Source: Salegentibacter sediminis (GTDB taxonomy: Bacteria; Bacteroidota; Bacteroidia; Flavobacteriales; Flavobacteriaceae). From it: a stretch of DNA of 64,000 nucleotides. The notes beneath the pieces are model-generated. The model worked only from the letters and a program-made list of their open reading frames with translations, ran no database searches and was not told the origin of the DNA. Made by a program: the position numbers and the translations under genes. Location: contig NZ_MSJR01000003.1 of NCBI RefSeq assembly GCF_002078605.1, positions 186,001 to 250,000 on the forward strand. The letters are read 5' to 3'. The first letter of the stretch is position 1, and each line of letters starts with the position of its first letter. This document shows positions 545 through 14,538 of this stretch, in pieces.

Positions 545-1570
545 TTAATAACTGATAGAACTTGCTTTAATTCCGGTTTCGATGATTTTCTTTAGTTGTT
601 TGTAAACGAACCCCACTTTATTCTGGGGCAGGTGTAATACAGGCAGTTGCAGTCCGGTTTGTCGAATCATCTTAAAAGCAATCTTTTTCTCGCTTATCCC
701 CAGGTTTCTTAAGGACAGAAAATATTGTTTTGGATCCTTACTCAACGTCTTTCTGGCGGTATAGCTTTCCACGTAATTCCGGTTGTACTGGAACATCTTG
801 TCAAAAGCTTTTTCAGAATTTTGAAAAAAACGATCCCGCTCAAAACCCCGCTTTACGATTTTGCCATGCATCTTCACTTCTGAAGCTTTGTATTTGCTGC
901 CCGGGGAAAGGCTGTAAGAGTTTGAAGCATCTTTTCTGCTTACAATGATATGGATATGGCTTTGCAGTCCTTCTTTTTTCATTCCCGGTTCCACTACCTG
1001 GCCTCGAATTTTATAGGGAGCATCTCGGACCACCTTTTGAATTTCATTTTTAAGCTGCCGGGTATTTCCAGGTATTCCCCCACGTTCTACTTTGCCAAGT
1101 TCATTTTTCAATTTGGCAATCTGCTTACTGTAGGGTTTATTTTCCCGAATAGCTACATCATAACTTTTATAGGTTCGCTCATGTTCAATTTTGGCGAAAT
1201 ATTTAATGTCGTCAACATTGATGGGCCTTCCGCCTATCTCCCGGTTAAAGGAAGTGGCATATTCCTTCATAGCTTTACGAACAAAAGCCCGGAGTTTTTC
1301 AGGATTATTATGAATATGTTTTAATTCGTACTGGCTGGGGTTTATGGTGATAGAATAATATTTGGGTTCTTTGAGTTTTAACTTCGCTGTATTCCCATCG
1401 ATCTCTTTAATTACCTCATACGGGCGTATTTTATCCTCATATTGATTAAAAAAATATTCCTTTTCCGACGAGCTTTTTCCCTGATTTTCTTTTTCCAGAT
1501 AAGTCACAAAATCCCCTGCACTTTGTGAATAAGCGCCACCTAATTTTTGAGGAGAGATGGTGATATACAT
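545..1570 (-). CDS. Relaxase/mobilization protein, MobB/DUF5712-like
   Basis: 341 aa. It is predicted to nick oriT and pilot the transferred strand of the element. The N-terminus (MYITISPQKLGG, FVTYLEKEN at ~21-29) is the start characteristic of the DUF5712/MobB relaxases of Bacteroidota. A HIHIIVSR motif at ~205-212 provides the HxH metal ligands expected of a HUH-type relaxase. Tyrosines that could be catalytic are several, so I do not assign one. The start codon overlaps the stop of the BfmA/BtgA-like gene (TAATG), indicating translational coupling. Codon use is AT-rich like the rest of the element. Family assignment is by recognition only. Confidence 0.75.
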   Translation of the reverse strand: MYITISPQKLGGAYSQSAGDFVTYLEKENQGKSSSEKEYFFNQYEDKIRPYEVIKEIDGNTAKLKLKEPKYYSITINPSQYELKHIHNNPEKLRAFVRKAMKEYATSFNREIGGRPINVDDIKYFAKIEHERTYKSYDVAIRENKPYSKQIAKLKNELGKVERGGIPGNTRQLKNEIQKVVRDAPYKIRGQVVEPGMKKEGLQSHIHIIVSRKDASNSYSLSPGSKYKASEVKMHGKIVKRGFERDRFFQNSEKAFDKMFQYNRNYVESYTARKTLSKDPKQYFLSLRNLGISEKKIAFKMIRQTGLQLPVLHLPQNKVGFVYKQLKKIIETGIKASSISY

Positions 1571-2094
1571 TAGGACCTGCGTTTGAAAGTTATTTTAACT
1601 CGTTCTAATTCTGACCGGGGGATATTTAACTTTAGATAATCCGGACCAAAAGGGGTACTCTTTATTTCGACATTATCTAGTAGGTACTCCAAATCTTTAT
1701 TTGTTGCTTTTACTATTTTCTCAAGTCGGGTGATTTCTGATTTCATTTGCCCCAGGCTTTTTTCATTTGAGACAGAAATTTTTTCCCTTTTTGCAACTTC
1801 CACTTTTGGAACCGAACGCCCTTCCATTAGTAACTCAAGCATTAACAAACCTGGTTTGGTCTGGGTCTTTTCAATATTTTTGAGAATAGCAATAACGGCA
1901 TCAATTCTTTTTTTAATAAGCTGTTCCAGGCTTACTTTTGAAGGCACTAAGGTTTCAAAAGGGGAGAGGTTATTTTTCTCAAAAAAGTCCAGAATCAGGT
2001 CTAAAGTTTCGGACTGGTTGCTATTGTTCTTTTTTGAAAACTCCCGGAACCTCTTTGCTGTATTTGCTTTTAATTGCAGCCTTGATTTTGACAT
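1570..2094 (-). CDS. BfmA/BtgA-family mobilization accessory protein
   Basis: 174 aa. It likely is the relaxosome accessory protein that binds oriT and helps the relaxase encoded immediately downstream (TAATG overlap). The N-terminus (KSRLQLKANTAKRFREFSKK, then NQSETLDLILDFFEKN) resembles a ribbon-helix-helix/MobC-like DNA-binding segment seen in BfmA/BtgA proteins. The middle is a long helical, probably coiled-coil region (LGQMKSEITRLEKIVKATNK). The inverted-repeat cluster at 2234-2300, just upstream of its start, would be the natural binding site. Identification rests on pattern recognition and on the operon with the relaxase. Confidence 0.7.
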   Translation of the reverse strand: MSKSRLQLKANTAKRFREFSKKNNSNQSETLDLILDFFEKNNLSPFETLVPSKVSLEQLIKKRIDAVIAILKNIEKTQTKPGLLMLELLMEGRSVPKVEVAKREKISVSNEKSLGQMKSEITRLEKIVKATNKDLEYLLDNVEIKSTPFGPDYLKLNIPRSELERVKITFKRRS

Positions 2095-4542: not shown

Positions 4543-4665
4543 TAAAAATATTAAAGGAGGATCCTTTTTCATAATAAGATTGGGTAGGCTTGTATTTTAG
4601 AAACTTATTTTCCGATATTGAATTTCAGCAAACGTTCTTTGAATTATATATATCCAATTAAAAAT

Positions 4666-4749
4666 AGAGAACTCACGCCACTGTATATACCAAAGCATTT
4701 AGTGAGTACCACAATCTGCCTCACCTTACGGGTGTACAGGCACCCTCGT
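4666..4749 (-). ncRNA. Predicted guide RNA scaffold, copy A (distal) with its own guide
   Basis: Read on the minus strand this ~84-nt unit matches copy B (4925-4841) nearly throughout, starting TACGAGGGTG and ending GCGTGAGTTCTCT. Shared helices are hairpin 1 GGGTG/CACCC (4745-4741 with 4734-4730), hairpin 2 GTGAG/CTCAC (4724-4720 with 4706-4702) and hairpin 3 ATGC/GTAT (4698-4695 with 4690-4687). In hairpin 3 a C-to-T change versus copy B leaves a G-U pair, so pairing is kept. Conservation stops abruptly after TTCTCT, and the next bases (4665-4646, ATTTTTAATTGGATATATAT) are unique: the predicted guide. Being co-directional with and downstream of the dead-Cas12f gene fits a TnpB/Cas12f guide RNA. 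Exact ends are inferred. Confidence 0.7.
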
Positions 4750-4840
4750 ATTCTATTCGAATAATTTATAACAATCTGTAATTCAAAATTCGTCTAACTA
4801 GTTTGCAGTGTATGTACTTTGCGATTTTAAAATATTGCTA

Positions 4841-4925
4841 AGAGAAACCCACGCGTTGTATATGCTAAGCGCATTTAGTGAGTGAAATATTCACCTCACC
4901 TTGCGGGTGTACAAGCACCCTCATA
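4841..4925 (-). ncRNA. Predicted guide RNA scaffold, copy B (gene-proximal)
   Basis: This 85-nt unit on the minus strand begins 9 nt after the stop codon of the dead-Cas12f gene. Helices visible: GGGTG-CTTGTA-CACCC (4920-4905); an extended hairpin of TCAC/GTGA plus TTCAC/GTGAA (4899-4878, one bulged base); and ATGC-GCTTA-GCAT (4874-4862). The 3' end GCGTGGGTTTCTCT matches copy A. The following 20 nt (4840-4821, TAGCAATATTTTAAAATCGC) differ and are the predicted guide. In the opposite orientation the following sequence would be the coding end of the nuclease gene, which argues for the minus-strand reading. The transcript has not been observed; function is by analogy with TnpB omegaRNA and Cas12f guides. 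Confidence 0.72.
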
Positions 4926-4934
4926 ATTTATCGT

Positions 4935-6032
4935 TTAATCTGTTATTAGTTCAATACCGGCTTTTTCGGCCTTGTATTTAATTTTGGTCATCAGGTCATA
5001 ATAACTCCAGTTCCTTAGTACAAAAGCCTCCTCCCTGGCTATTTCAATCTTCTTCTCCTGATTCACTAAAACCAGTGTTCCTGCCTGGTGTTTTACACAG
5101 AAGTTGATAAGCTCCCTGCTATACACGTGCAATCGATGGTTTACATAATTATGCTCCTTTTCCCCATACCTGGCCATGGCCTTTGTTTTCCGCTTACGTC
5201 CATTTCCCGACCTGGCATATTTGACTCCCTCCCGGGTCCTTCTACAGGCGGCCTGTATCGCCAACCTTCGATATAGAAATTCTTCCCTGCTGCCGATGCT
5301 AAGCCTGGCTTTACCGATCTTCACCATAATGGGGTATTCCAGTGACAAGCTGGCTTCCGCAACCACTTCCGGCCGTAACCTGTGCTTTTCTTTTTCAATT
5401 TCAAAAGCGGCCAACATAAAGATCTTGCCATCTTTTAACTTAAGGTAGGAAGTACGCATCTTAATCTCTCCCTTTGTTAGCTGATGCATTAATTTCCACT
5501 TGTCGTCAAATGCTTTTCCCAAATAGGTTTTCACGGGAATGGAAAAGAACCGAAAGCAAAAGGCACTTTTTTCAGGCTTGAATTCCAGGCCACAAACCCC
5601 TTCCATGCTAAATGGGAAAGCCATTTCCTTTTTGAAACTATGTAAGGAACGCTCGCCTCTCCAATATTCCTCCCGGTTTTTATTGAAAGTACTTTGAATG
5701 CTGCTATTCAGTTGGGATAAAATGTTGGTAGGCATTTTTCCTTTGAAACGGTTGGATACCATCCGGTAGGTCGTGTTCATCCTCGAACGGTTGAAGATGC
5801 CAAGTTCATCTTTTTTTTCATCCACCAGTTTATATTTGACCCCTTCCGATAAATAGAAGAACTCCTGGATCATTTCCTGGACATAAAGATGGGAAACAAT
5901 AAGGTTCGCAGCCTTATGGCAGCGGTGACGCCATTGATACAGCTTACTTTTAGCTTCCCGGCGTTCTTCCTCGGTAGGCAGATCGATCACCAATTGGATC
6001 CTTCGAGTGAGTGTTATCGTTTCCTTTCCCAT
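4935..6032 (-). CDS. Nuclease-dead TnpB/Cas12f-family protein (dCas12f-like), RNA-guided DNA binder
   Basis: 365 aa. It is predicted to bind a guide RNA and a matching DNA target without cutting. The C-terminal half is plainly TnpB/Cas12-like: DGKIFMLAAFEIEKEKHR (~201-218), EEFLYRRLAIQ (~250-260), GNGRKRKTKAMARYGEKEHN (~277-294), the helix ending INFCVKHQAGTLVLV (~309-323), and NWSYYDLMTKIKYKAEKAGI (~341-360). All three RuvC acidic residues are lost. The DLGI position reads ASLSL (Asp to Ser near 228), the Glu of IVLE reads LVLV (near 323), and the protein ends before the zinc ribbon and third Asp. It starts 2 nt after the sigma gene's stop, so the two are co-translated, and guide-RNA units follow its stop. 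No TnpA transposase is nearby. Such dead homologues paired with ECF sigma factors have recently been reported from Bacteroidota as RNA-guided transcription activators. A TldR-type repressor is the alternative. Confidence 0.85.
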   Translation of the reverse strand: MGKETITLTRRIQLVIDLPTEEERREAKSKLYQWRHRCHKAANLIVSHLYVQEMIQEFFYLSEGVKYKLVDEKKDELGIFNRSRMNTTYRMVSNRFKGKMPTNILSQLNSSIQSTFNKNREEYWRGERSLHSFKKEMAFPFSMEGVCGLEFKPEKSAFCFRFFSIPVKTYLGKAFDDKWKLMHQLTKGEIKMRTSYLKLKDGKIFMLAAFEIEKEKHRLRPEVVAEASLSLEYPIMVKIGKARLSIGSREEFLYRRLAIQAACRRTREGVKYARSGNGRKRKTKAMARYGEKEHNYVNHRLHVYSRELINFCVKHQAGTLVLVNQEKKIEIAREEAFVLRNWSYYDLMTKIKYKAEKAGIELITD

Positions 6033-6034
6033 AA

Positions 6035-6817
6035 CTAAGCCGATTGTTGTTGTTCATGTTTGTGTTGTATTAGCTTATAGGCGGTCATAAATTCCTGGTG
6101 GACCTCCTTTTGGGAAAGGTTTAGCTCCCTGGCTATTGCAGCAAAAGAGTACTGCCTCTCATTACGAAGTCGCAAGACCTTTTTCTGTTCCTCGGTCATT
6201 TCCCCCTGTAGCTTTACCGCCAACAAGGGTTTTGGTTCGGTATTCAAAGTGCTTCCCTGATGGATGATATTTTTAATATCTTCTATCGCTCTTTTTACCT
6301 CGTTACTTGTATGGGTAATACTGAACCCCATTACCTGGCCAACCCTTTTATAGCGAAAATCATATTTTAAACAAAGCTCAATAAGATGTCTTCTCTTGGA
6401 GTTAAGTAGTGGAAAAACTTTTTTTATTCTGTCAAAGGCCTTTTGCTGCGCCTCGTGATCTTTATGGTGTTGAAGATCCTCCTTGGGATCATATCCAGCT
6501 AAATAGTCCTGGTAGTTCTCATAACTTTCCAGGGAATTGACGGTTCTGAAAAACTTATTTTTAGGTCGGACATAATAGGTGTAGCATTCCCTTTTCATTA
6601 CCATCCGCAGGAAATAGTAAATATGTTCCGGTCGTTCTATCCTGTCTCTTTTCTCCCATAAAATTAGAAAGGTATCCTGTGCCAATGTTTCCACAGCAAA
6701 ATCATCATCCAGAATTTGCCTGCCCACCCAGAAAATATTGCGGTAATATTTAGTGTATATAAATTCCAAAGCATCGGGATGCCCTTGTTGTAATAATTTA
6801 AAAATACGCTGTAACAT
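6035..6817 (-). CDS. ECF-like sigma factor partnered with dead Cas12f
   Basis: 260 aa. Predicted role: recruit RNA polymerase where the dead-Cas12f/guide complex binds. The region-2-like part is at ~15-75 (ALEFIYTKYYRNIFWVGRQI, LAQDTFLILWEKRDRI, HIYYFLRMVMKRE), and the region-4-like HTH is at ~132-185 (FDRIKKVFPLLNSKRRHLIE, RYKRVGQVMGFSITHTSNEV). Unusually, it continues with ~70 residues holding what looks like a second HTH: EEQKKVLRLRNERQYSFAA, then IARELNLSQKEVHQEF (~208-242). Typical ECF factors are ~160-200 aa. No anti-sigma gene adjoins it, unlike SusCD-linked ECF factors. The ATG at 6817 is the first codon of the conserved part. A structured RNA and a near-palindrome (6838-6851) lie upstream and may control it. 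Confidence 0.82.
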   Translation of the reverse strand: MLQRIFKLLQQGHPDALEFIYTKYYRNIFWVGRQILDDDFAVETLAQDTFLILWEKRDRIERPEHIYYFLRMVMKRECYTYYVRPKNKFFRTVNSLESYENYQDYLAGYDPKEDLQHHKDHEAQQKAFDRIKKVFPLLNSKRRHLIELCLKYDFRYKRVGQVMGFSITHTSNEVKRAIEDIKNIIHQGSTLNTEPKPLLAVKLQGEMTEEQKKVLRLRNERQYSFAAIARELNLSQKEVHQEFMTAYKLIQHKHEQQQSA

Positions 6818-6851: not shown

Positions 6852-6952
6852 CAGAATTAAACTGAATTTAGCTTAAGCGAATTCTTATAAGATAAAGAGA
6901 AGATAGCTTTGAAAAGAATTGAGAAGGATGCCTGTTTTTTACAAACAAAAAA

Positions 6953-7078
6953 GGCGTGGAGACTCAACTTATCGATCTAAGGTACTGGTATACCACGCAA
7001 CAATAAGCAAGCCCACGCCCGGGTCGTGAGCATTATGCTTATCCTCTCGTTGCTTAAAATTACCAGTTTTTAGATCGA
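6953..7078. ncRNA. Highly structured RNA candidate upstream of the sigma/dCas12f operon
   Basis: Six exact helices can be drawn within 126 nt: 6972-6980 with 7070-7078 (9 bp), 6984-6990 with 7061-7067 (7 bp), 6997-7001 with 7049-7053, 7003-7009 with 7036-7042 (7 bp) and 7014-7017 with 7025-7028, all co-nested. In addition GGCGTGG (6953-6959) pairs with CCACGCC (7013-7019), giving a pseudoknot or alternative fold. Read on the minus strand, that CCACGCC arm is followed at once by TTTTTT, so pairing with GCGTGG (6998-6993) or with 7019-7013 would make a terminator-like hairpin in the leader of the sigma gene. Strand is not certain. I recognise no Rfam family. Confidence 0.6.
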
Positions 7079-7218
7079 GATTCAAAGCAAAATGCTTCTA
7101 ATATTTTACTTTAAGAAGTTTCGCAAATATATTAATATGAAGTAAATATAATAATTTTTTTATTAATGCGGTCTGCAAACCGCATTAATTTATTTTTCAT
7201 CCGTTTCCTTTGTTAAGG

Positions 7219-7458
7219 ATGGACTACAATCACGCTATATATAAATACATAGAATATCTCTTCAAGAAATCTGAATTATCCAAACGTAAGTTTGCTAAAG
7301 TTCATTTTATAGAAGATAGCACCGTACGAGATATTCTTAATAAAGGTGATTACCAAATTAGTTTACTTACAATTTTTAGAATCTGTGAAGGGGAAAATAT
7401 TAGTCCTTCGGAATTCTTCTCCGAAGTAGAAAATATGTTCCCGGAAGCAAAAATTTAG
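7219..7458 (+). CDS. Small XRE/Cro-type helix-turn-helix regulator
   Basis: 79 aa from the ATG at 7219 (a TTG at 7210 would add three residues). The whole protein is one Cro/C1-type HTH domain: NHAIYKYIEYLFKKSELSKR, then KFAKVHFIEDSTVRDILN as the helix-turn-helix, and SLLTIFRICEGENISPSEFF. It is divergent from the sigma/dead-Cas12f operon and sits 80 bp upstream of the methyltransferase gene. It may act as a controller (C-protein-like) for the methyltransferase cassette or repress the divergent operon; which one cannot be decided from sequence. Confidence 0.75.
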   Translation: MDYNHAIYKYIEYLFKKSELSKRKFAKVHFIEDSTVRDILNKGDYQISLLTIFRICEGENISPSEFFSEVENMFPEAKI

Positions 7459-7537: not shown

Positions 7538-8848
7538 TTGACAACACGAGCAAAGATTGAAAAGTCACTTTATTCGATTAGTCCGGATATTTTAAACGGG
7601 GTTAATTGCAGTAATAAAGAAAACGCCAGAAGAATTATTAATTATCCTGCCATGATGGTTCCTAGTGTGCAGGAATCCATAATTCAAAGTATTTTAGATT
7701 ATTACCCTGAGGAAATTTCTCTTTTAGATCCATTTATGGGAGCATCAAATACACTTGTTACAGGTATGAAATTTGGTGTCAATGTTTTTGGGCAGGATAT
7801 TAATCCTCTTTCAATTCTTATCAGTCAAGTTAAAACTAAAATTTACGATTACAGTTTATCCGAAAAATTTGAAGATTTAATACTGAAATTAGACAGATCT
7901 AGATCTACAAAAATTGAAATAGATTTTAACAATATAGATAAGTGGTTTAAAAAAGAAGTTCAAGTAGAACTATCCCAAATATATAGGGCTATATTAAAAG
8001 AGCCAGATATTAACATTCGCAAATTTTATTGGGTGACATTGGCAGAAGTTATCAGATTAACAAGCAATGATAGAACTTCGACTTTCAAAATGCATGTCAG
8101 ACCGTTAGAAGAAATCACTAAAAGAAATTTATCTCCTAAAGAGTATTTCAAGAAAATTGGTAAACGGAATATTGCCGATTTGTTAACCTTAAAGAGTGAA
8201 TTGAGTGAAAAAGGTTTTATAACCGAGAACTCGTATCAAAAATCTGTAGGTGTTCACTGGGGTGACTCGAAGTTGAAAATTAATACAAAAGCTAGGTGCA
8301 ATTTATTAGTGACTTCGCCACCTTATGGAGATAATCAAACAACTGTTACTTATGGTCAATTTTCATACTTACCTTTACAATGGATTCCTATTTCAGAAAT
8401 AGATGAAAAAATTAACATCGATTATTTAAAAGCCATACAGTCTATTGATTCTCTAAGTTTAGGAGGTAAAACTGTACAAGATTATAACCTAGTGGAAAAA
8501 ATGTTATTTGAAAAGTCCACAACACTATATACTCTTTTCCAAAAATTTAATGAGAATCAAAAGATTAAAGCTAAGAAAGTATTAAACTTTTTCCATGATT
8601 TAGATTCCACGATTGATAATATTCTAAACTCTATGGAAGATGATTCTTATCTCATCTGGACTGTGGGTAATAGAAGCGTTAATAAAGAAGTTGTGGAAAA
8701 TGATAATATAATAGCGGAATTATTTAAATCTAAAGGTGTTGACTTATTTGTGGATTTGGAAAGAGATATATTAGGTAAAAGGATGCCTAATAAAAATAAT
8801 TTTTCTAGTACTATGTCAAAAGAGAAAATCTTGATTTTCAAAAATTAA
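7538..8848 (+). CDS. DNA methyltransferase (SPPY-type, N4-cytosine/N6-adenine)
   Basis: 436 aa. It is predicted to transfer a methyl group from S-adenosylmethionine to an exocyclic amino group in DNA. The SAM-binding motif I is LLDPFMGASNTLVTG (~62-76), followed by VFGQDINPLS (~83-92). The catalytic motif IV is TSPPYGDN (~259-266), and GQFSYLPLQWIP follows. The order I before IV, with a long segment between them that could recognise the target, suggests an alpha-type layout. The only in-frame start covering the conserved N-terminus is TTG at 7538; the next ATGs are at codons 39-40, inside it. It ends 2 nt before the GHKL ATPase gene, so an operon is likely. No recognisable restriction nuclease adjoins it. 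Confidence 0.85.
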   Translation: MTTRAKIEKSLYSISPDILNGVNCSNKENARRIINYPAMMVPSVQESIIQSILDYYPEEISLLDPFMGASNTLVTGMKFGVNVFGQDINPLSILISQVKTKIYDYSLSEKFEDLILKLDRSRSTKIEIDFNNIDKWFKKEVQVELSQIYRAILKEPDINIRKFYWVTLAEVIRLTSNDRTSTFKMHVRPLEEITKRNLSPKEYFKKIGKRNIADLLTLKSELSEKGFITENSYQKSVGVHWGDSKLKINTKARCNLLVTSPPYGDNQTTVTYGQFSYLPLQWIPISEIDEKINIDYLKAIQSIDSLSLGGKTVQDYNLVEKMLFEKSTTLYTLFQKFNENQKIKAKKVLNFFHDLDSTIDNILNSMEDDSYLIWTVGNRSVNKEVVENDNIIAELFKSKGVDLFVDLERDILGKRMPNKNNFSSTMSKEKILIFKN

Positions 8849-8850
8849 AT

Positions 8851-11301
8851 ATGGGCTCTAATCTACACTTCGACATTACTCCACATATTGTAAAACAACT
8901 AGGAGAACAATTGGTATCTGATGAAGTAACTGCGCTATTAGAGCTTATAAAGAATTCATACGATGCGGATGCTAGTTATGTATCTATTGATATAAATACA
9001 CAAGAAAAATATACCGACGAAAAACTTTTTTATCCAGATCACAAAGGATATCTGATAGTTGAAGACGACGGTTTCGGTATGAGTAGAGAGACTATACTAA
9101 AGTCCTGGCTGTTGATATCATACTCAGAAAAAAGGAATCAGAAATTAAAGAGAAAAAAAACTCCTAAAGGTCGGACTCCTTTAGGAGATAAAGGACTTGG
9201 GAGGTTGAGTACTCAAAGATTATCAGATATCTGTGAAATCTTCACAAGTACTGACAGTAAAGATGGTACTCATCTGGCTTTTAATTGGAAAGATTTTGAA
9301 AAAGAAGATAGACTTAGTGAAGTAAGGATTAAGGAAAGAAACTATAATCCGAAAAGTATTGGTACAAAATTGATCTTAAGTGATCTCAATTATCATGAAG
9401 TTTGGTCAGGTAAAAATTTAGAGAGATTCAAAGGTCAAGTCTCTCAAATTATCTCACCATATAAAGAAAATAGACCCTTCGAAGTTTATATACGAGTCAA
9501 CGGAATTTCAATAGATTTAGAAGAATCTAATGAAAACCTTAGAGATTTAGCTTTTGGGCGATACAAATTTAACTTTGATGGTTCAAAAATAAGTATAAGT
9601 GGAAAGACCAAACTTTATAAATTTTTAGGTAACAAACCAACTGAGTACAAACAATATCTCCTTCCAGATAATGGAGCTAAATTTTTTGAGTTTCTTTCAA
9701 AAAAATATCCAGAATATAAAAAGTCAAACCAAAACGATTTCTTTTTGGAATTTAAACAGGATCATCACCTCGATGATTTAGGAGGTATGGAGGTTGTAGA
9801 TGGGGAACGAGCAAATCCTGGTCCATTCCAAGGTGTTATCGATGAATTTAGCTATGATAACTGGCTTTCAAAAGATGAAGAGGTGCAGAATGTATTTGGG
9901 GGTTTTGCAAATTATAGGGCATTTGCTCAAAACCAGTCGGGTATCAAAATATATCGAAATGGTTTTGCAGTCAAACCTTTTGGACTGGACGATAATGATT
10001 GGTTAAAGCTAGGAGGAGGACAGACCTCTGGAAGTTCCTTTTACGGTTTAAGGCCTTCCAATGTAATTGGTTACTTTTCAATAGATGAAGGTTCTAATGA
10101 GAATCTCAAGGACAAAACTGATCGAGAGGGACTTGTTTCTAATCCATATTCTAGAAATTTTTTCTTAATAGCAGATTTTATTAAAGATAGAATTAATATA
10201 TATCAAACTAATATTAGAAGAGCATATAATGAATTTTTGAATATATATAAAACGGAAAATAGTGGAATAAAAACTGTATCTGAAGCTTTTAATGAAATCA
10301 AAAGAACTAAGGATGAAACAGAATCCTTAACCAAGGAAGCTATTCAATCTAAAAAAACTGTCGACAGTTTGATTGAAGAACAAAGTCGAATAGTAAACGA
10401 GGTTGAAAACAATCCGATGTTTGCAAAAGAAGAATTTAAAACAAATTACGATAAAGCTTTAAAAATTTTAGATCGACTAAAATCTATTCAAAAAACCTTT
10501 GAAGGAATAGAAAAAATAGTACAAAGATCAAAAAACTTAGGAGAAGTAATAGATGTATTAGAACCAAAAATAGAAACGTTAGAATCACAGTTAAGCGATT
10601 TCTCTGAATTAGCTAGTTTAGGTATAACAGCAGAATCAATTAGTCATGAGTTTGCAGGTTCAGCTGATAGACTAGGATTAAAAGCCAACCATTATTTTAA
10701 GAAACTTCAAAATAATAGTTTGTCGGATTCTGATCTACATGTTCTATTAGAGTATATAAAAACCACCGTAAATGGATTTAAAGTTCAATTGCGTCATTTA
10801 GATCCAGCTCTTAAATATCATCGTGAAAAGAAAGAAAAAATTAGCATAAGTAATTTTTTTCAGCAAGAAATGAATTATTATAACCACAGATTTAAAGAGA
10901 AAGAAATTCAGTTGGATATAAAGACTACGGATGATTTTAGAATTAAGGCTAATAGAGGAAAACTTACTCAAATCATAGATAACCTTTTAATAAACTCAGA
11001 GTATTGGTTAAAAGAGAAAAAATCTGCGGATGCAAATTTTCAACCACGTATTACAATTGAAATTGTTAGCCCTTGGATAAATATCGGCGATAATGGCTAC
11101 GGTATACCAAAATCTATAGAGAATCAATTATTCGATCCTTTTGTAACCACCAAGCCAAAAGGAAAGGGAAGGGGATTAGGATTATTTATAGTTAGGCAAC
11201 TTTTAGACTCGATGGGCGGTACTATAGCTCTGGATCCCGAAAGAAATAATAATGGTAAACTTTTTAATTTCACGATCAACCTTAGTAATGCTTTAATTTA
11301 A
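8851..11301 (+). CDS. Double-GHKL protein: MORC-like ATPase fused to histidine-kinase module
   Basis: 816 aa. It carries two ATPase modules. The N-terminal one is Hsp90/MutL/MORC-like: ALLELIKNSYDADA (~29-42, catalytic Glu and Mg-binding Asn), EDDGFGM (~71-77) and LGDKGLGRLS (~111-120). A coiled-coil stretch (~480-585) follows. The C-terminal one is a histidine-kinase core: an H-box-like SISHEFAGSADRL with His near 599, KLTQIIDNLLINS, IGDNGYGIP, LFDPFVTTK and KGRGLGLFIV (to ~780). This supports a cytoplasmic kinase that could phosphorylate the receiver-like protein encoded 1 nt downstream. No membrane segment is seen. MORC/MutL-like ATPases are known in restriction-modification-like operons, so a defence role is inferred. 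Confidence 0.8.
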   Translation: MGSNLHFDITPHIVKQLGEQLVSDEVTALLELIKNSYDADASYVSIDINTQEKYTDEKLFYPDHKGYLIVEDDGFGMSRETILKSWLLISYSEKRNQKLKRKKTPKGRTPLGDKGLGRLSTQRLSDICEIFTSTDSKDGTHLAFNWKDFEKEDRLSEVRIKERNYNPKSIGTKLILSDLNYHEVWSGKNLERFKGQVSQIISPYKENRPFEVYIRVNGISIDLEESNENLRDLAFGRYKFNFDGSKISISGKTKLYKFLGNKPTEYKQYLLPDNGAKFFEFLSKKYPEYKKSNQNDFFLEFKQDHHLDDLGGMEVVDGERANPGPFQGVIDEFSYDNWLSKDEEVQNVFGGFANYRAFAQNQSGIKIYRNGFAVKPFGLDDNDWLKLGGGQTSGSSFYGLRPSNVIGYFSIDEGSNENLKDKTDREGLVSNPYSRNFFLIADFIKDRINIYQTNIRRAYNEFLNIYKTENSGIKTVSEAFNEIKRTKDETESLTKEAIQSKKTVDSLIEEQSRIVNEVENNPMFAKEEFKTNYDKALKILDRLKSIQKTFEGIEKIVQRSKNLGEVIDVLEPKIETLESQLSDFSELASLGITAESISHEFAGSADRLGLKANHYFKKLQNNSLSDSDLHVLLEYIKTTVNGFKVQLRHLDPALKYHREKKEKISISNFFQQEMNYYNHRFKEKEIQLDIKTTDDFRIKANRGKLTQIIDNLLINSEYWLKEKKSADANFQPRITIEIVSPWINIGDNGYGIPKSIENQLFDPFVTTKPKGKGRGLGLFIVRQLLDSMGGTIALDPERNNNGKLFNFTINLSNALI

Positions 11302-11302
11302 A

Positions 11303-13108
11303 ATGGCGGAAAAAATTATCCTGAATTCTAAACTCGGTACCCAAAACATCACACCTCAAACTAGTAATGGAGAGAAAGAAAAAGCTATAGAGGCGATAAA
11401 CCAGTTACTCGATAAGGAAAATATTGAATTTATTTACTATATAGATGATAAAATTGAGGTAGGACAACAAGAAAGTTATTTTAAAGGAATGATGAATACC
11501 GCAAAGATGAAAAGTCATTCCTTCGAGCATCCAATTTTTAAAGATCTTAATTCAAATCTTCCAAATCCTGTCTTTCAACAAAAAGTTAAAGATCTATGGG
11601 ATAATGAGAGCGACAAGAAGAAACTAATACATGAGGTTTCTATGGTGTTAGAAAATGAAGAAAGTTCTAACATAATTCCTTCAATGGAAATTGAGGAATT
11701 CTTTCCAGAAAAACTAAAACTTCTCACTCCAAATGACTGGATACAAAAATATAAAAAAGACTTAAGCTCTATTGGAGAGGACAAAAAAATTCTTTGCCTT
11801 TTCGATTTTGAACTTCATGATTTTAAAGGTCCAAACGGCGAAAAAAATGGAGCTGATTTATTGAAGAATGTTCTAGAAAGTGAATTTAATAATAAAGTTA
11901 TCTGCGGAATATTTTCCCATCATTTCAGTATAGAGGATGAGGATGAATACAGGCGAATTTATTCTGATGATTATGAGATATCCCCTAAGAAATTTTATAC
12001 TGTTTCTAAAACCAGGTTTGCACATGATCCAAAACTCAGTGCTTTTGCTGAAGGAATAAAGAATGTGGTGTCCCTCCCCTATCTAGAAGACCTAAAAGAA
12101 AAATCTATAGACATTATTATAGAAAGTAATCAGAGTTCGATTACCGAGTTGAGTGAAATAAGTCCTAAAACTTATAACCGAATCGTACAGAGAGCATCTT
12201 ACAAAGAAGGGATTTGGGAAGTTGAAGGACTCTTTAGAATGAGCTCTATACTAAATACGCATCATAATTTTAAAACCTTAATGAAGGATGAAATTCGACA
12301 AAGCTTTGATGATTCGATTAAACAAATTCGAGAATTAGATTCTGTCGCAACAGGCTACAATCATATCGATGAAGATAAAAAAGCGGTGGATCTAAGATTC
12401 AAAGAAGTTTTTTTGGATGGTGAACTACTTACAAAATTACATTTTCCAGTTGGAAACGGAGATATATTTAAAATAGGTAAGAAAGAATATATTTTACTCG
12501 TTCAACCTTGTAATATAGCTTTAAGATCAGATGCTAAAAGGGGCAGGGGATTTAACATCGGTACGTTAGTGCCGCTAAAAGTTATTTCTAAACAAAAATA
12601 TAACGCAGCAGTTTCGTCTTCTTTGGTTGATCCAGAAACTGGAGATGGAGAAGTTTCGTGTGCTTTTTTTGCAGAATTTAAAACAATTCCTTTAGATATT
12701 TTAGATTTAACCGTGTTTAATGAGAATAGCGAGGCAATTTTAGATATGGCCGTTTCGGATCTCGAATCAAATGATATCTTGATACCATCCTGGAAGAAAA
12801 GATATGAGATAATTTATAAGGATTTTAAAAAGGAGGAGATAGCCTACTTAGCATTCGAAAAACTTAAGCCTACCTTAAAAGATACATTAGATAAAACTGA
12901 GATTGATAAGTTGAAATCTTTTTTCGAAAAACCTTCGTACGTCAAACAATTTTCATTAGGAAAACATAACATTTATAACGCTGATGGAAAACGTTTTGAT
13001 TTTAATATAAAACGAATAAAAAGGTATCAATTTCCTTATTCAGCAGACTTACTGCAATCTTTTATGGCGTACCAGGCAAGAAATGGATTTGATGTTGAAT
13101 TCGTATGA
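11303..13108 (+). CDS. Receiver-domain protein partnered with the GHKL kinase (probable phosphorelay output)
   Basis: 601 aa. The N-terminal ~245 residues fit a response-regulator receiver fold interrupted by a long insert. The acidic pair is FIYYIDDK (Asp48/Asp49), the phosphoacceptor candidate is LCLFDFELHDF (Asp168), the Ser of IFSHHF is near 205, and the Lys of YTVSK is near 236. About 120 residues separate the acidic pair from Asp168, where normal receivers have ~45, so an insertion is inferred. The rest (~300-600) is an unrecognised domain with NGDIFKIGKKEYILLVQPCN and IALRSDAKRGRGF. It is not a standard DNA-binding output. It is the last gene of the methyltransferase-kinase operon. The effector activity is unknown. 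Confidence 0.65.
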   Translation: MAEKIILNSKLGTQNITPQTSNGEKEKAIEAINQLLDKENIEFIYYIDDKIEVGQQESYFKGMMNTAKMKSHSFEHPIFKDLNSNLPNPVFQQKVKDLWDNESDKKKLIHEVSMVLENEESSNIIPSMEIEEFFPEKLKLLTPNDWIQKYKKDLSSIGEDKKILCLFDFELHDFKGPNGEKNGADLLKNVLESEFNNKVICGIFSHHFSIEDEDEYRRIYSDDYEISPKKFYTVSKTRFAHDPKLSAFAEGIKNVVSLPYLEDLKEKSIDIIIESNQSSITELSEISPKTYNRIVQRASYKEGIWEVEGLFRMSSILNTHHNFKTLMKDEIRQSFDDSIKQIRELDSVATGYNHIDEDKKAVDLRFKEVFLDGELLTKLHFPVGNGDIFKIGKKEYILLVQPCNIALRSDAKRGRGFNIGTLVPLKVISKQKYNAAVSSSLVDPETGDGEVSCAFFAEFKTIPLDILDLTVFNENSEAILDMAVSDLESNDILIPSWKKRYEIIYKDFKKEEIAYLAFEKLKPTLKDTLDKTEIDKLKSFFEKPSYVKQFSLGKHNIYNADGKRFDFNIKRIKRYQFPYSADLLQSFMAYQARNGFDVEFV

Positions 13109-13200: not shown

Positions 13201-14538
13201 CTAAAAATTGATTACACTATCCAAAGCATCATCAGCATCTCTATGAATAAAGTTGGCCTGGTAATTCAGTGTGGTTTTTAAATCACTATGCCGGTAAAGC
13301 TTTTGTAACATGAGAGGGTGAATTTTGTCCCCGGCTATGTTTCCAAAAGTATGACGGGCTATGTGGTTTGAGAGGTTTTTGTCTATTTCACACTCGTTAG
13401 CTATTCGTTTTAGGAATTTGTTTAAAACCTTAGTAGCGTTCCTCATTTTAAGAAATACGCTTTTTGGATCCTGTTGATTTGCATCTTTTAAAAATGGAAA
13501 AATATAGCCATTGTTTTCCGTCTTATCCATCAGGTAGAGATTAAAGATGGTTCTGGCTTTGTCCGGGACTTTAAAGCTTAATGGTTTTTCATTCTTATTC
13601 ATCACATAGTACAGGCGGCCATCTTTTACATCTGTCCACTTCAAGGCTACAACATCTGAAATTCTTATACCTGCAAAGTAGAAGGAAACTAGCCAGACAT
13701 TCCTGGTATGCCAAATTGAAGAATAACTTTCCACTGCAAGATTTTCTATTCTGGTAACTTCCTCAGCAGTCAGTCCAATTTTATTTCCTGAGCCAATCCT
13801 GATTTTTTCTTTTTCGCCCGCGAAGGGATAATACTTTTGAGAAACAATCCCGTCTTTTATAGCAACATTAAAGAGGGTTCTAATAAAAATAAGTTGGTTT
13901 GTGATGGTTCGGGTCTTGTGTCCCAAGTATGTGGAGCAAAAGGCTTTGTACTTATTCAGAAATGATTCATTCATTTCCCGAAATTCCAGTCGGGTATTTC
14001 TCTTAAAATAGGTAATAGCATCCTCAAAAGAATATTGACCTTTTCTGGTCTTACTCACTCGTATTCGTCTTCGCTCTTTAATTGATTTTATAACCTCCTC
14101 TTTCTTTTGACTGGTTTTGAGGTTCAGAAACTCTTCCAAGTTATAGAGAATAGACAGCTCAGATTTCGCGACAGAAAAAGTTCCTTTATCATATTTTTGC
14201 TTTACACGTTCAGCCGCTACTGCAAAGAAAGATTGAGAACCTCCCGGTCCTTTGAGTTTGTTTTTAATCTGTCTGGGAGTTAAATCATCTTCTGAATGAA
14301 AATACAAATCTTGTGCTTTGGTAATCTTCTTGTTGAGAAAATAGTTTAGCTTTTTGTGGTTTGGGTGGGTCTTTTTTACTTTTCTCAAAGTTTCATCCCA
14401 ATCTTTCTCTAAAATCGAATGGCCCAAAAAATAATAATTGGTCTTGTAGTTTTCACTTATTCTTAAGGCAAGAGGAATGGTGCCATTTTTCTTCATTTTG
14501 TTGGGGCGTAAGACTACTTGAATATTTACCATAACCAT
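13201..14538 (-). CDS. Tyrosine recombinase / phage-type integrase
   Basis: 445 aa. It catalyses site-specific integration and excision of the element at the tRNA site immediately upstream of its start. The arm-binding N-terminus (NIQVVLRPNKMKKNGTIPLA) and SAM-like core-binding region precede the catalytic domain. The catalytic set is visible: Arg in FAGIRISDVVALKW (~289-302), HIARHTF (His and Arg, ~397), His in LYRHSDLKTT and the nucleophile Tyr in LNYQAN (~427). This is the usual layout of Bacteroidota integrases of ~400-450 aa. Two in-frame ATGs (14538 and 14532) are possible; the first is taken. The position 170 bp from the tRNA fragment is standard for the integrase end of such elements. 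Confidence 0.93.
   Translation of the reverse strand: MVMVNIQVVLRPNKMKKNGTIPLALRISENYKTNYYFLGHSILEKDWDETLRKVKKTHPNHKKLNYFLNKKITKAQDLYFHSEDDLTPRQIKNKLKGPGGSQSFFAVAAERVKQKYDKGTFSVAKSELSILYNLEEFLNLKTSQKKEEVIKSIKERRRIRVSKTRKGQYSFEDAITYFKRNTRLEFREMNESFLNKYKAFCSTYLGHKTRTITNQLIFIRTLFNVAIKDGIVSQKYYPFAGEKEKIRIGSGNKIGLTAEEVTRIENLAVESYSSIWHTRNVWLVSFYFAGIRISDVVALKWTDVKDGRLYYVMNKNEKPLSFKVPDKARTIFNLYLMDKTENNGYIFPFLKDANQQDPKSVFLKMRNATKVLNKFLKRIANECEIDKNLSNHIARHTFGNIAGDKIHPLMLQKLYRHSDLKTTLNYQANFIHRDADDALDSVINF

What the first reader, a model, noticed from the sequence alone, without database searches (positions are those of the whole stretch)
4666..6817. Sigma factor coupled to a nuclease-dead TnpB/Cas12f protein with guide-RNA units: a predicted RNA-guided transcription system
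Seen: an ECF-like sigma gene whose stop is 2 nt before a TnpB/Cas12f-family gene; the latter has lost all RuvC acids (Asp to Ser near 228, Glu to Val near 323, third Asp removed by C-terminal truncation). Two conserved RNA-like units lie directly downstream on the same strand. Known: dead Cas12f homologues linked to ECF sigma factors in Bacteroidota have recently been reported to activate transcription where their guide RNA directs them. Inference: here the sigma factor is brought to promoters by RNA base pairing rather than by promoter motifs. This would make the locus the main novelty of the window, with guides still to be matched to targets.
Basis: partly seen in the sequence, partly recalled or inferred. 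Interest (0 to 1): 0.97.

Follow-up and report, generated by a model that had tools for sequence, protein, structure and literature searches.

The report
Guide-RNA-directed sigma factor cassette
This bacterial locus belongs to a recently solved family in which a disarmed CRISPR-type protein and its guide RNA appear to bring a sigma factor, and so RNA polymerase, to chosen genes; the new clue is that its guides resemble the switch segment of an RNA leader found before its own operon and, in relatives, before nutrient-uptake genes.

Summary
On the minus strand a sigma gene (6817-6035) ends 2 nt before a 365-aa Cas12f-family gene (6032-4935) that has lost its RuvC acids; two guide-RNA units follow (scaffolds 4924-4855, 4749-4680). 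The kind of system is known: the protein matches the solved 'Nuclease-deactivated Cas12f' 9n9c/9n9m/9n9o/9n9q at 561 bits, the sigma matches RpoE of 9n9q at 324 bits. All 34 related loci found keep sigma, dead Cas12f and gRNA scaffold.

What I add concerns targets. A 152-nt structured leader (7090-6939) precedes the operon here and in 20 of 34 related loci, and SusC-like genes in 26 of 47 further copies fetched. Two mutually exclusive folds both covary. Fifty of 76 parsed guides resemble the shared switch segment, which has a G before it. I infer autoactivation plus control of SusC operons.

Weak points: the window's guides match their leader only over 6-10 nt; no other own-genome target stands clear of chance; guides are not tuned to their own genome's leaders (P=0.25); nothing was tested at the bench.

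The parts
6035..6817 (-). sigma factor gene (ECF type, 260 aa)
   Evidence: Pfam Sigma70_r2/r4; TIGR02937; RpoE chain of 9n9q, 323.6 bits; relative upstream of dCas12f in 34 of 34 loci
4935..6032 (-). nuclease-dead Cas12f (365 aa)
   Evidence: 9n9c 561.3 bits; PADLOC Cas12f 166 bits; S228, V323 and C-terminal truncation
4855..4924 (-). gRNA unit 1, scaffold
   Evidence: covariance model R2, 89.0 bits (this unit was among the 24 sequences of the model)
4835..4854 (-). gRNA unit 1, guide region (GCGTGGGTTTCTCTTAGCAA)
   Evidence: follows the conserved scaffold end; near-identical guide in S. flavus L032; guide length not determined
4680..4749 (-). gRNA unit 2, scaffold
   Evidence: covariance model R2, 74.7 bits (also among the sequences of the model)
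4660..4679 (-). gRNA unit 2, guide region (GGCGTGAGTTCTCTATTTTT)
   Evidence: guide length not determined
6939..7090 (-). two-state structured leader element upstream of the sigma gene
   Evidence: R1 170.9 bits (among the 23 sequences of the model); covariation in two exclusive folds; no Rfam 15 family reported there
7001..7018 (-). candidate guide target: switch segment of the leader, preceded by G
   Evidence: unit 1 matches 7 nt exactly and 10 allowing a U-G wobble, unit 2 matches 6 nt
7210..7458 (+). small divergent gene next to the leader (82 aa; HTH-like by position only)
   Evidence: only weak hits for this one, while 9 of 9 counterparts tested carry a helix-turn-helix

Best explanation
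The cassette makes an RNA-guided transcription complex. dCas12f binds the gRNAs encoded just downstream, opens a matching DNA site next to a 5' G without cutting, and carries the co-encoded sigma factor, which brings RNA polymerase to start downstream of the R-loop. In this family I infer that many guides address the switch segment of a conserved leader locus found before the sigma-dCas12f operon itself and, in relatives, before SusC-like outer-membrane uptake genes; other guides address other sites in SusC leaders. Shown by sequence: gene order, loss of RuvC acids, gRNA scaffolds, close homology to solved complexes, leader structure, leader-SusC linkage, guide resemblance. Inferred: complex formation here, the target of this window's guides, activation rather than repression.
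For: 9n9c/9n9m/9n9o/9n9q match over residues 1-363 at 561 bits; next best Cas12f 138 bits. RpoE of 9n9q, 324 bits. PDB titles 'dCas12f-gRNA complex' and 'dCas12f-gRNA-DNA complex (partial R-Loop)'. Sigma upstream of dCas12f in 34 of 34 loci, projected gap 11 nt or less in 31; no Asp at 228 in 34 of 34; gRNA scaffold in 35 of 35 sources. Leader R1 in 21 of 35 sources and 65 copies in 21 of 22 genomes; 26 of 47 fetched copies precede SusC-like genes. 50 of 76 parsed guides are of the CGTG class; of 95 same-genome guide-leader pairs with an exact prefix of 7 or more, 88 have G before the site. Other guides fit SusC leaders of their own genome better than those of other genomes, P 0.0145 uncorrected; the taeanensis guide fits 12 of 14 with the first 10 exact and a 5' G, 261 nt before susC.
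Against: No experiment. This window's guides match its own leader over only 7 nt (10 with a wobble) and 6 nt. Own-genome hits of guide 1 (8, self included) do not exceed the control (11); guide 2 has one 3-mismatch hit besides itself, control 0. CGTG guides do not match leaders of their own genome better than those of other genomes (P 0.25). A 20-nt search with the taeanensis guide found only gRNAs. 14 of 35 sources with the cassette lack the leader nearby, and all 14 still carry a CGTG- or CATG-type tail, so any leader target there would be elsewhere.
Confidence: 0.9

Rival explanations
1. The cassette works as an RNA-guided repressor, like TldR: dCas12f blocks the leader or promoter, and the sigma factor acts separately at its own promoters.
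For: Dead Cas12f without a sigma gene exists: an IMG/VR phage-like contig carries a 33%-identical relative lacking the RuvC acids and a gRNA-like scaffold, and none of 7 neighbouring ORFs tested matches a sigma family. A guide on a leader could block elongation.
Against: A sigma gene lies directly upstream of dCas12f in 34 of 34 loci, and an RpoE chain sits in the same PDB entry as the close homologue.
Confidence: 0.07
2. The guide-like 3' parts do not address DNA but pair with the RNA of the leader's terminator arm, acting as antisense antiterminators; dCas12f only stabilises the RNA.
For: The guide resembles the 5' arm of the terminator-like fold, so it could pair with the 3' arm in RNA.
Against: A solved homologue is bound to DNA in a partial R-loop; guide starts fall where the leader has a preceding G in 88 of 95 pairs; other guides match other leader sites.
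Confidence: 0.08
3. The system is RNA-guided activation, but the resemblance of guides to the leader is shared ancestry or coincidence of a G+C-rich hairpin arm, and the true targets of this window's guides are elsewhere or absent from this genome. (This rivals only the target part of the best explanation.)
For: Weak own-genome matches and no within-genome tuning.
Against: In 9 of 10 genomes searched the closest match to the consensus guide is a gRNA or a leader segment, with more hits than a reversed control in 8 of 10; guides of the second class also fall in leaders of the same SusC genes.
Confidence: 0.3

Closest known systems
dCas12f-gRNA-RpoE system of PDB 9n9c, 9n9m, 9n9o, 9n9q (9n9c and 9n9m released 2025-12-24; I recall this as the Flagellimonas taeanensis system of the Sternberg and Chang groups; paper not held, not seen)
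   Same: Same protein length and gene order, 561 and 324 bits, same gRNA scaffold; the taeanensis locus L010 has the leader too
   Different: Here two gRNA units with CGTG-class guides; L010 has one unit with a different guide
Cas12f nucleases (AsCas12f1 7wju, Al3Cas12f 9nzo)
   Same: Homology over residues 84-363 and fold matches
   Different: RuvC acids lost, C-terminal end missing, sigma gene attached
TldR, nuclease-dead TnpB repressors (PMC13418256, find passages only)
   Same: Inactivated RuvC, RNA-guided transcription factor
   Different: TldR represses; here a sigma gene is co-encoded and the closest solved relatives are Cas12f

Membership tests
dCas12f-sigma RNA-guided transcription systems | close homologue of the solved dead Cas12f | tested here: met
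   561.3 bits over residues 1-363
dCas12f-sigma RNA-guided transcription systems | RuvC catalytic acids lost | tested here: met
   S228, V323 (E326 in one gapped alignment), truncation
dCas12f-sigma RNA-guided transcription systems | co-encoded sigma factor like the RpoE of 9n9q | tested here: met
   323.6 bits, 2-nt gap
dCas12f-sigma RNA-guided transcription systems | gRNA with conserved scaffold encoded nearby | tested here: met
   two units
dCas12f-sigma RNA-guided transcription systems | guide matches a DNA site next to 5' G (the 5' G rule is recalled) | tested here: inconclusive
   6-10 nt seed with 5' G on the own leader; no other site clear of chance
dCas12f-sigma RNA-guided transcription systems | start site set by distance from the R-loop, no promoter motif (recalled) | not testable with these tools
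   needs RNA-seq or in-vitro transcription
CRISPR-Cas12f immunity | active RuvC nuclease | tested here: not met
CRISPR-Cas12f immunity | CRISPR array of short repeats with spacers | tested here: inconclusive
   only two 70-nt scaffolds 175 nt apart were found; no repeat finder was run and cas1/cas2 were not searched for
transposon TnpB / TldR | closest to transposon TnpB proteins | tested here: not met
   guided_TnpB 57.1 bits, below its cut-off of 100, against 561 bits to dCas12f; no tree was built

The most novel reading that the evidence does not exclude
RNA-guided attenuator bypass with self-activation. The guide addresses the switch segment of a two-state leader RNA (paired either into a long hairpin or into a terminator-like fold), so that sigma-directed polymerase would start downstream of the terminator's 5' arm, make an RNA that cannot form the terminator, and switch on the sigma-dCas12f operon itself together with leader-bearing SusC operons. 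The leader family, its divergent small HTH gene and its use as a common address for guides would then define a regulon.
Probability: 0.33. Interest if true: 0.85.

Novelty: new member of a known kind. Interest (0 to 1): 0.55.

Why it matters
The machine itself is known from solved structures. What its guides aim at in nature is less clear to me. If the two-state leader is the common address, this links natural RNA-guided gene activation to nutrient-uptake (SusC) operons and to self-regulation through an attenuator, and gives a defined set of sites to test in cultured relatives. I could not read the original papers, so parts of this may already be reported.

Tried and rejected
Full-length guide targets in the own genome: guide 1 gave 8 hits at up to 3 mismatches, one of them the gRNA, against 11 for the control pattern; guide 2 gave itself and one 3-mismatch site, control 0. 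Guide 1 in ten relatives: 54 hits in all; the only exact one is in the S. flavus gRNA, and counts were below control in 7 of 10 genomes, above in 3. The taeanensis guide over 20 nt in two genomes: only the gRNAs, controls 1 and 1. Two other CGTG-like sites in the own genome (L036, L037) lie in sequence without the leader.

Within-genome tuning of CGTG guides to leaders: not significant (P 0.25). The second-class guide test gave P 0.0145 (n = 23 guides); four seed variants gave P 0.14, 0.041, 0.0036 and 0.066. None is corrected for the number of tests, and genomes are related. Dropped: one misparsed guide (L194) and repeats of the same 14 nt; one L018 guide was re-registered; one guide was left out because its genome has no SusC leader in hand. 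The SusC leader L132 was not used there (25 of 26 leaders).

Parsing limits: R2 found 78 gRNAs in 22 genomes; my pattern gave 74 there plus 2 in the window. R1 found 65 leaders; my pattern gave 54 in those genomes plus 1 in the window. In the genome searches with models only 138-150 first-look candidates per genome were scored, so copies may be missed.

Rfam: no reported family on the leader or gRNA strand and place (at the loose threshold an unrelated chance match overlaps gRNA 1 on the other strand). Plasmid and phage records: only distant TnpB-like hits. The predicted dCas12f model is moderate (mean pLDDT 63), so I used it for one strand boundary and for PDB titles. Papers: eight searches on the system or leader listed no paper that I recognised as describing either; some searches listed only 20 of 67, 10 of 15 and 10 of 20. 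One search was for AsCas12f1 residues and found none. One paper was seen by find passages.

Full report
Observation. On the minus strand, ORF 6817-6035 (260 aa) and ORF 6032-4935 (365 aa) are separated by 2 nt. The first has sigma-70 regions 2 and 4 and ECF-type matches. The second has sub-threshold matches to general TnpB/Cas12f2 models, strong ones to PADLOC Cas12f models (166 bits) and a very strong one to the solved 'Nuclease-deactivated Cas12f' 9n9c, 9n9m, 9n9o, 9n9q (561.3 bits; next best 138.3). The sigma matches RpoE of 9n9q (323.6 bits). Foldseek titles are 'dCas12f-gRNA complex' and 'dCas12f-gRNA-DNA complex (partial R-Loop)', released 2025-12-24. So the locus is a close relative of a characterised complex.

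Loss of the nuclease. S228 stands at the first RuvC Asp; the 34 related loci have S (32), T (1) or A (1) there. V323 stands at the Glu if no gap is placed and ends a predicted strand; the 34 loci have only V, M, L or I there. One gapped alignment prefers E326, which is E in 31 of 34, D in 1 and K in 2. The protein stops where the AsCas12f1 match reaches residue 361 of 422, so the C-terminal part is missing.

Relatives. A genome scan gave 34 loci; the record titles name Salegentibacter, Sinomicrobium, Allomuricauda, Salinimicrobium, Galbibacter, Mesonia and others. A sigma relative lies upstream in 34 of 34, with a projected gap of 11 nt or less in 31; L018, L021 and L024 have 147, 464 and 99 nt. 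In L018 a gRNA unit lies in that gap. In blastn most loci keep a block from the gRNAs to the sigma gene or to the leader. The own genome holds one dCas12f.

Guide RNAs. The scaffold model R2 (24 sequences, two of them from the window) finds units in 35 of 35 sources, 61 in all, two in the window, and only these two clearly in the own genome. The scaffold ends ATATACAAC or a variant, and the guide follows. Of 76 parsed guides, 50 in 18 genomes carry CGTG (in one case CATG) within their first 8 letters; 26 are different.

The leader element. Searching for guide matches near the loci showed a conserved block about 200 nt upstream of the sigma start. Model R1 (23 sequences, the window's among them) finds it at 150 bits or more in 21 of 35 sources, once in the own genome, and 65 times in 21 of 22 dCas12f-bearing genomes. 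Two folds were counted on the alignment. A long nested hairpin has 94.7% of 713 cells paired and 74 cells with double changes against 22.2 in shuffles. A fold that pairs the switch segment with a later arm, followed in many sequences by a T-run, has 98.8% of 483 cells paired and 12 double changes against 2.9. The two share 14 columns and exclude each other there; 12 of these 14 lie in the segment that guides resemble (columns 81-87 and 92-96). G-U pairs outnumber A-C 53 to 1 and 51 to 2 (21 of the 53 come from one column pair), which points to an RNA read in the direction of the downstream gene, not a DNA palindrome. The structures were chosen from the same alignment and the sequences are related, which favours them. 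The consensus terminator scan did not list the long terminator fold itself (its loop is too long for that scan) but lists the short hairpin of the switch segment.

What the leader precedes. Of the 65 copies, 18 belong to dCas12f loci by position; one of them, in G001 contig 41, was checked and has both genes. I fetched the other 47. Of these, 4 precede further sigma-dCas12f pairs by reading of the ORFs and 26 precede SusC-like genes; four of those 26 proteins and a part of a fifth were confirmed by Pfam and the rest by blastp to the four. The remaining 17 include ECF sigma genes called by eye (L130, L143, L153, L158), contig ends (L122, L139) and unclear cases. A divergent ORF starts 30-161 nt upstream in 40 of the 47 (L114-L153); the other 7 have a transposase or no such ORF. 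Nine of nine counterparts tested carry a helix-turn-helix, whereas the window's own 82-aa gene gives only a weak hit to another family.

Guides and leaders. In 9 of 10 genomes the closest match to the consensus guide is a gRNA or a leader segment (G010 has one unrelated 3-mismatch hit), with more hits than a reversed control in 8 of 10. Of 95 same-genome guide-leader pairs with an exact prefix of 7 or more (of 134 pairs), 88 are preceded by G, 4 by C and 3 by A; 30 of 46 guides have a prefix of 9 or more on some leader of their genome. In cis the best is L003, 18 of 18. For the window, unit 1 matches its own leader 7 nt exactly (10 allowing wobble) and unit 2 matches 6, both next to G. Against this, CGTG guides are no better matched to leaders of their own genome than to others (P 0.25), and all 14 loci without the leader still have a CGTG- or CATG-type tail (in L022 it lacks a full scaffold), so any leader target there would be elsewhere in the genome.

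Second class of guides. These tend to fit SusC leaders downstream of the element. CCTTCCCCTAAAGATT-type guides match a hairpin about 82 nt before susC, best in genomes other than their own. The taeanensis guide matches a site 261 nt before a susC in its own genome, 12 of 14, first 10 exact, preceded by G. Two Galbibacter guides match their own SusC leader next to G, one with 10 exact letters and one with 11 of 12. Overall own-genome fit is better than across genomes (P 0.0145), with mixed results for seed variants.

Mechanism. Shown by sequence: a dead RNA-guided DNA binder co-encoded with a sigma factor, gRNA units, and guides that resemble leader DNA. Inferred from the solved relatives: R-loop formation and delivery of sigma and RNA polymerase. 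I recall, but could not read, that such complexes start transcription at a fixed distance of about 46 bp from the target. If so, a start near 6973 would lie after the terminator's 5' arm (from 7018) and before its last arm segment (6959), so the new RNA could not form the terminator. This attenuator bypass is my own proposal.

Literature. Searches and 83 of the held library listed no paper that I recognised as describing this system or this leader (three listings were partial). The original work is recalled only, so I do not claim that the leader or its targets are unreported.

Verdict. A new member of a known kind, with a testable and possibly new link between guides, a two-state leader RNA and SusC operons.

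Noticed in passing
L223:4004-5128 and about 5305-5378: An IMG/VR contig with a phage portal gene encodes a 374-aa Cas12f relative (33% identical) that by eye lacks the RuvC acids, with a gRNA-like scaffold downstream; none of 7 neighbouring ORFs tested matches a sigma family.
   Followed up: partly
L158, L159, L160 (one Flavivirga genome): An IS110-family transposase (331 aa, Pfam; 237 aa listed in L158) lies next to three leader copies, each cut at about the same place, just before GCGTGGGC.
   Followed up: partly
window 7538-13108 (+): A type II methyltransferase-like gene, a GHKL-ATPase gene with weak restriction-enzyme similarity and an unknown gene form a possible restriction or defence operon beside the cassette.
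   Followed up: no
window 545-2094 (-) and 13201-14538 (-): MobB relaxase, BfmA-type mobilization protein and a tyrosine recombinase flank the cassette, so it may ride on a mobilizable element; L030 and L025 share part of the recombinase gene.
   Followed up: partly
upstream of leaders in L114-L153: The small divergent genes differ widely from copy to copy while the leader is conserved.
   Followed up: partly
L156, L157: Two low-scoring leader variants in the Salegentibacter oa5 chromosome precede other genes and may be a distinct subfamily.
   Followed up: no
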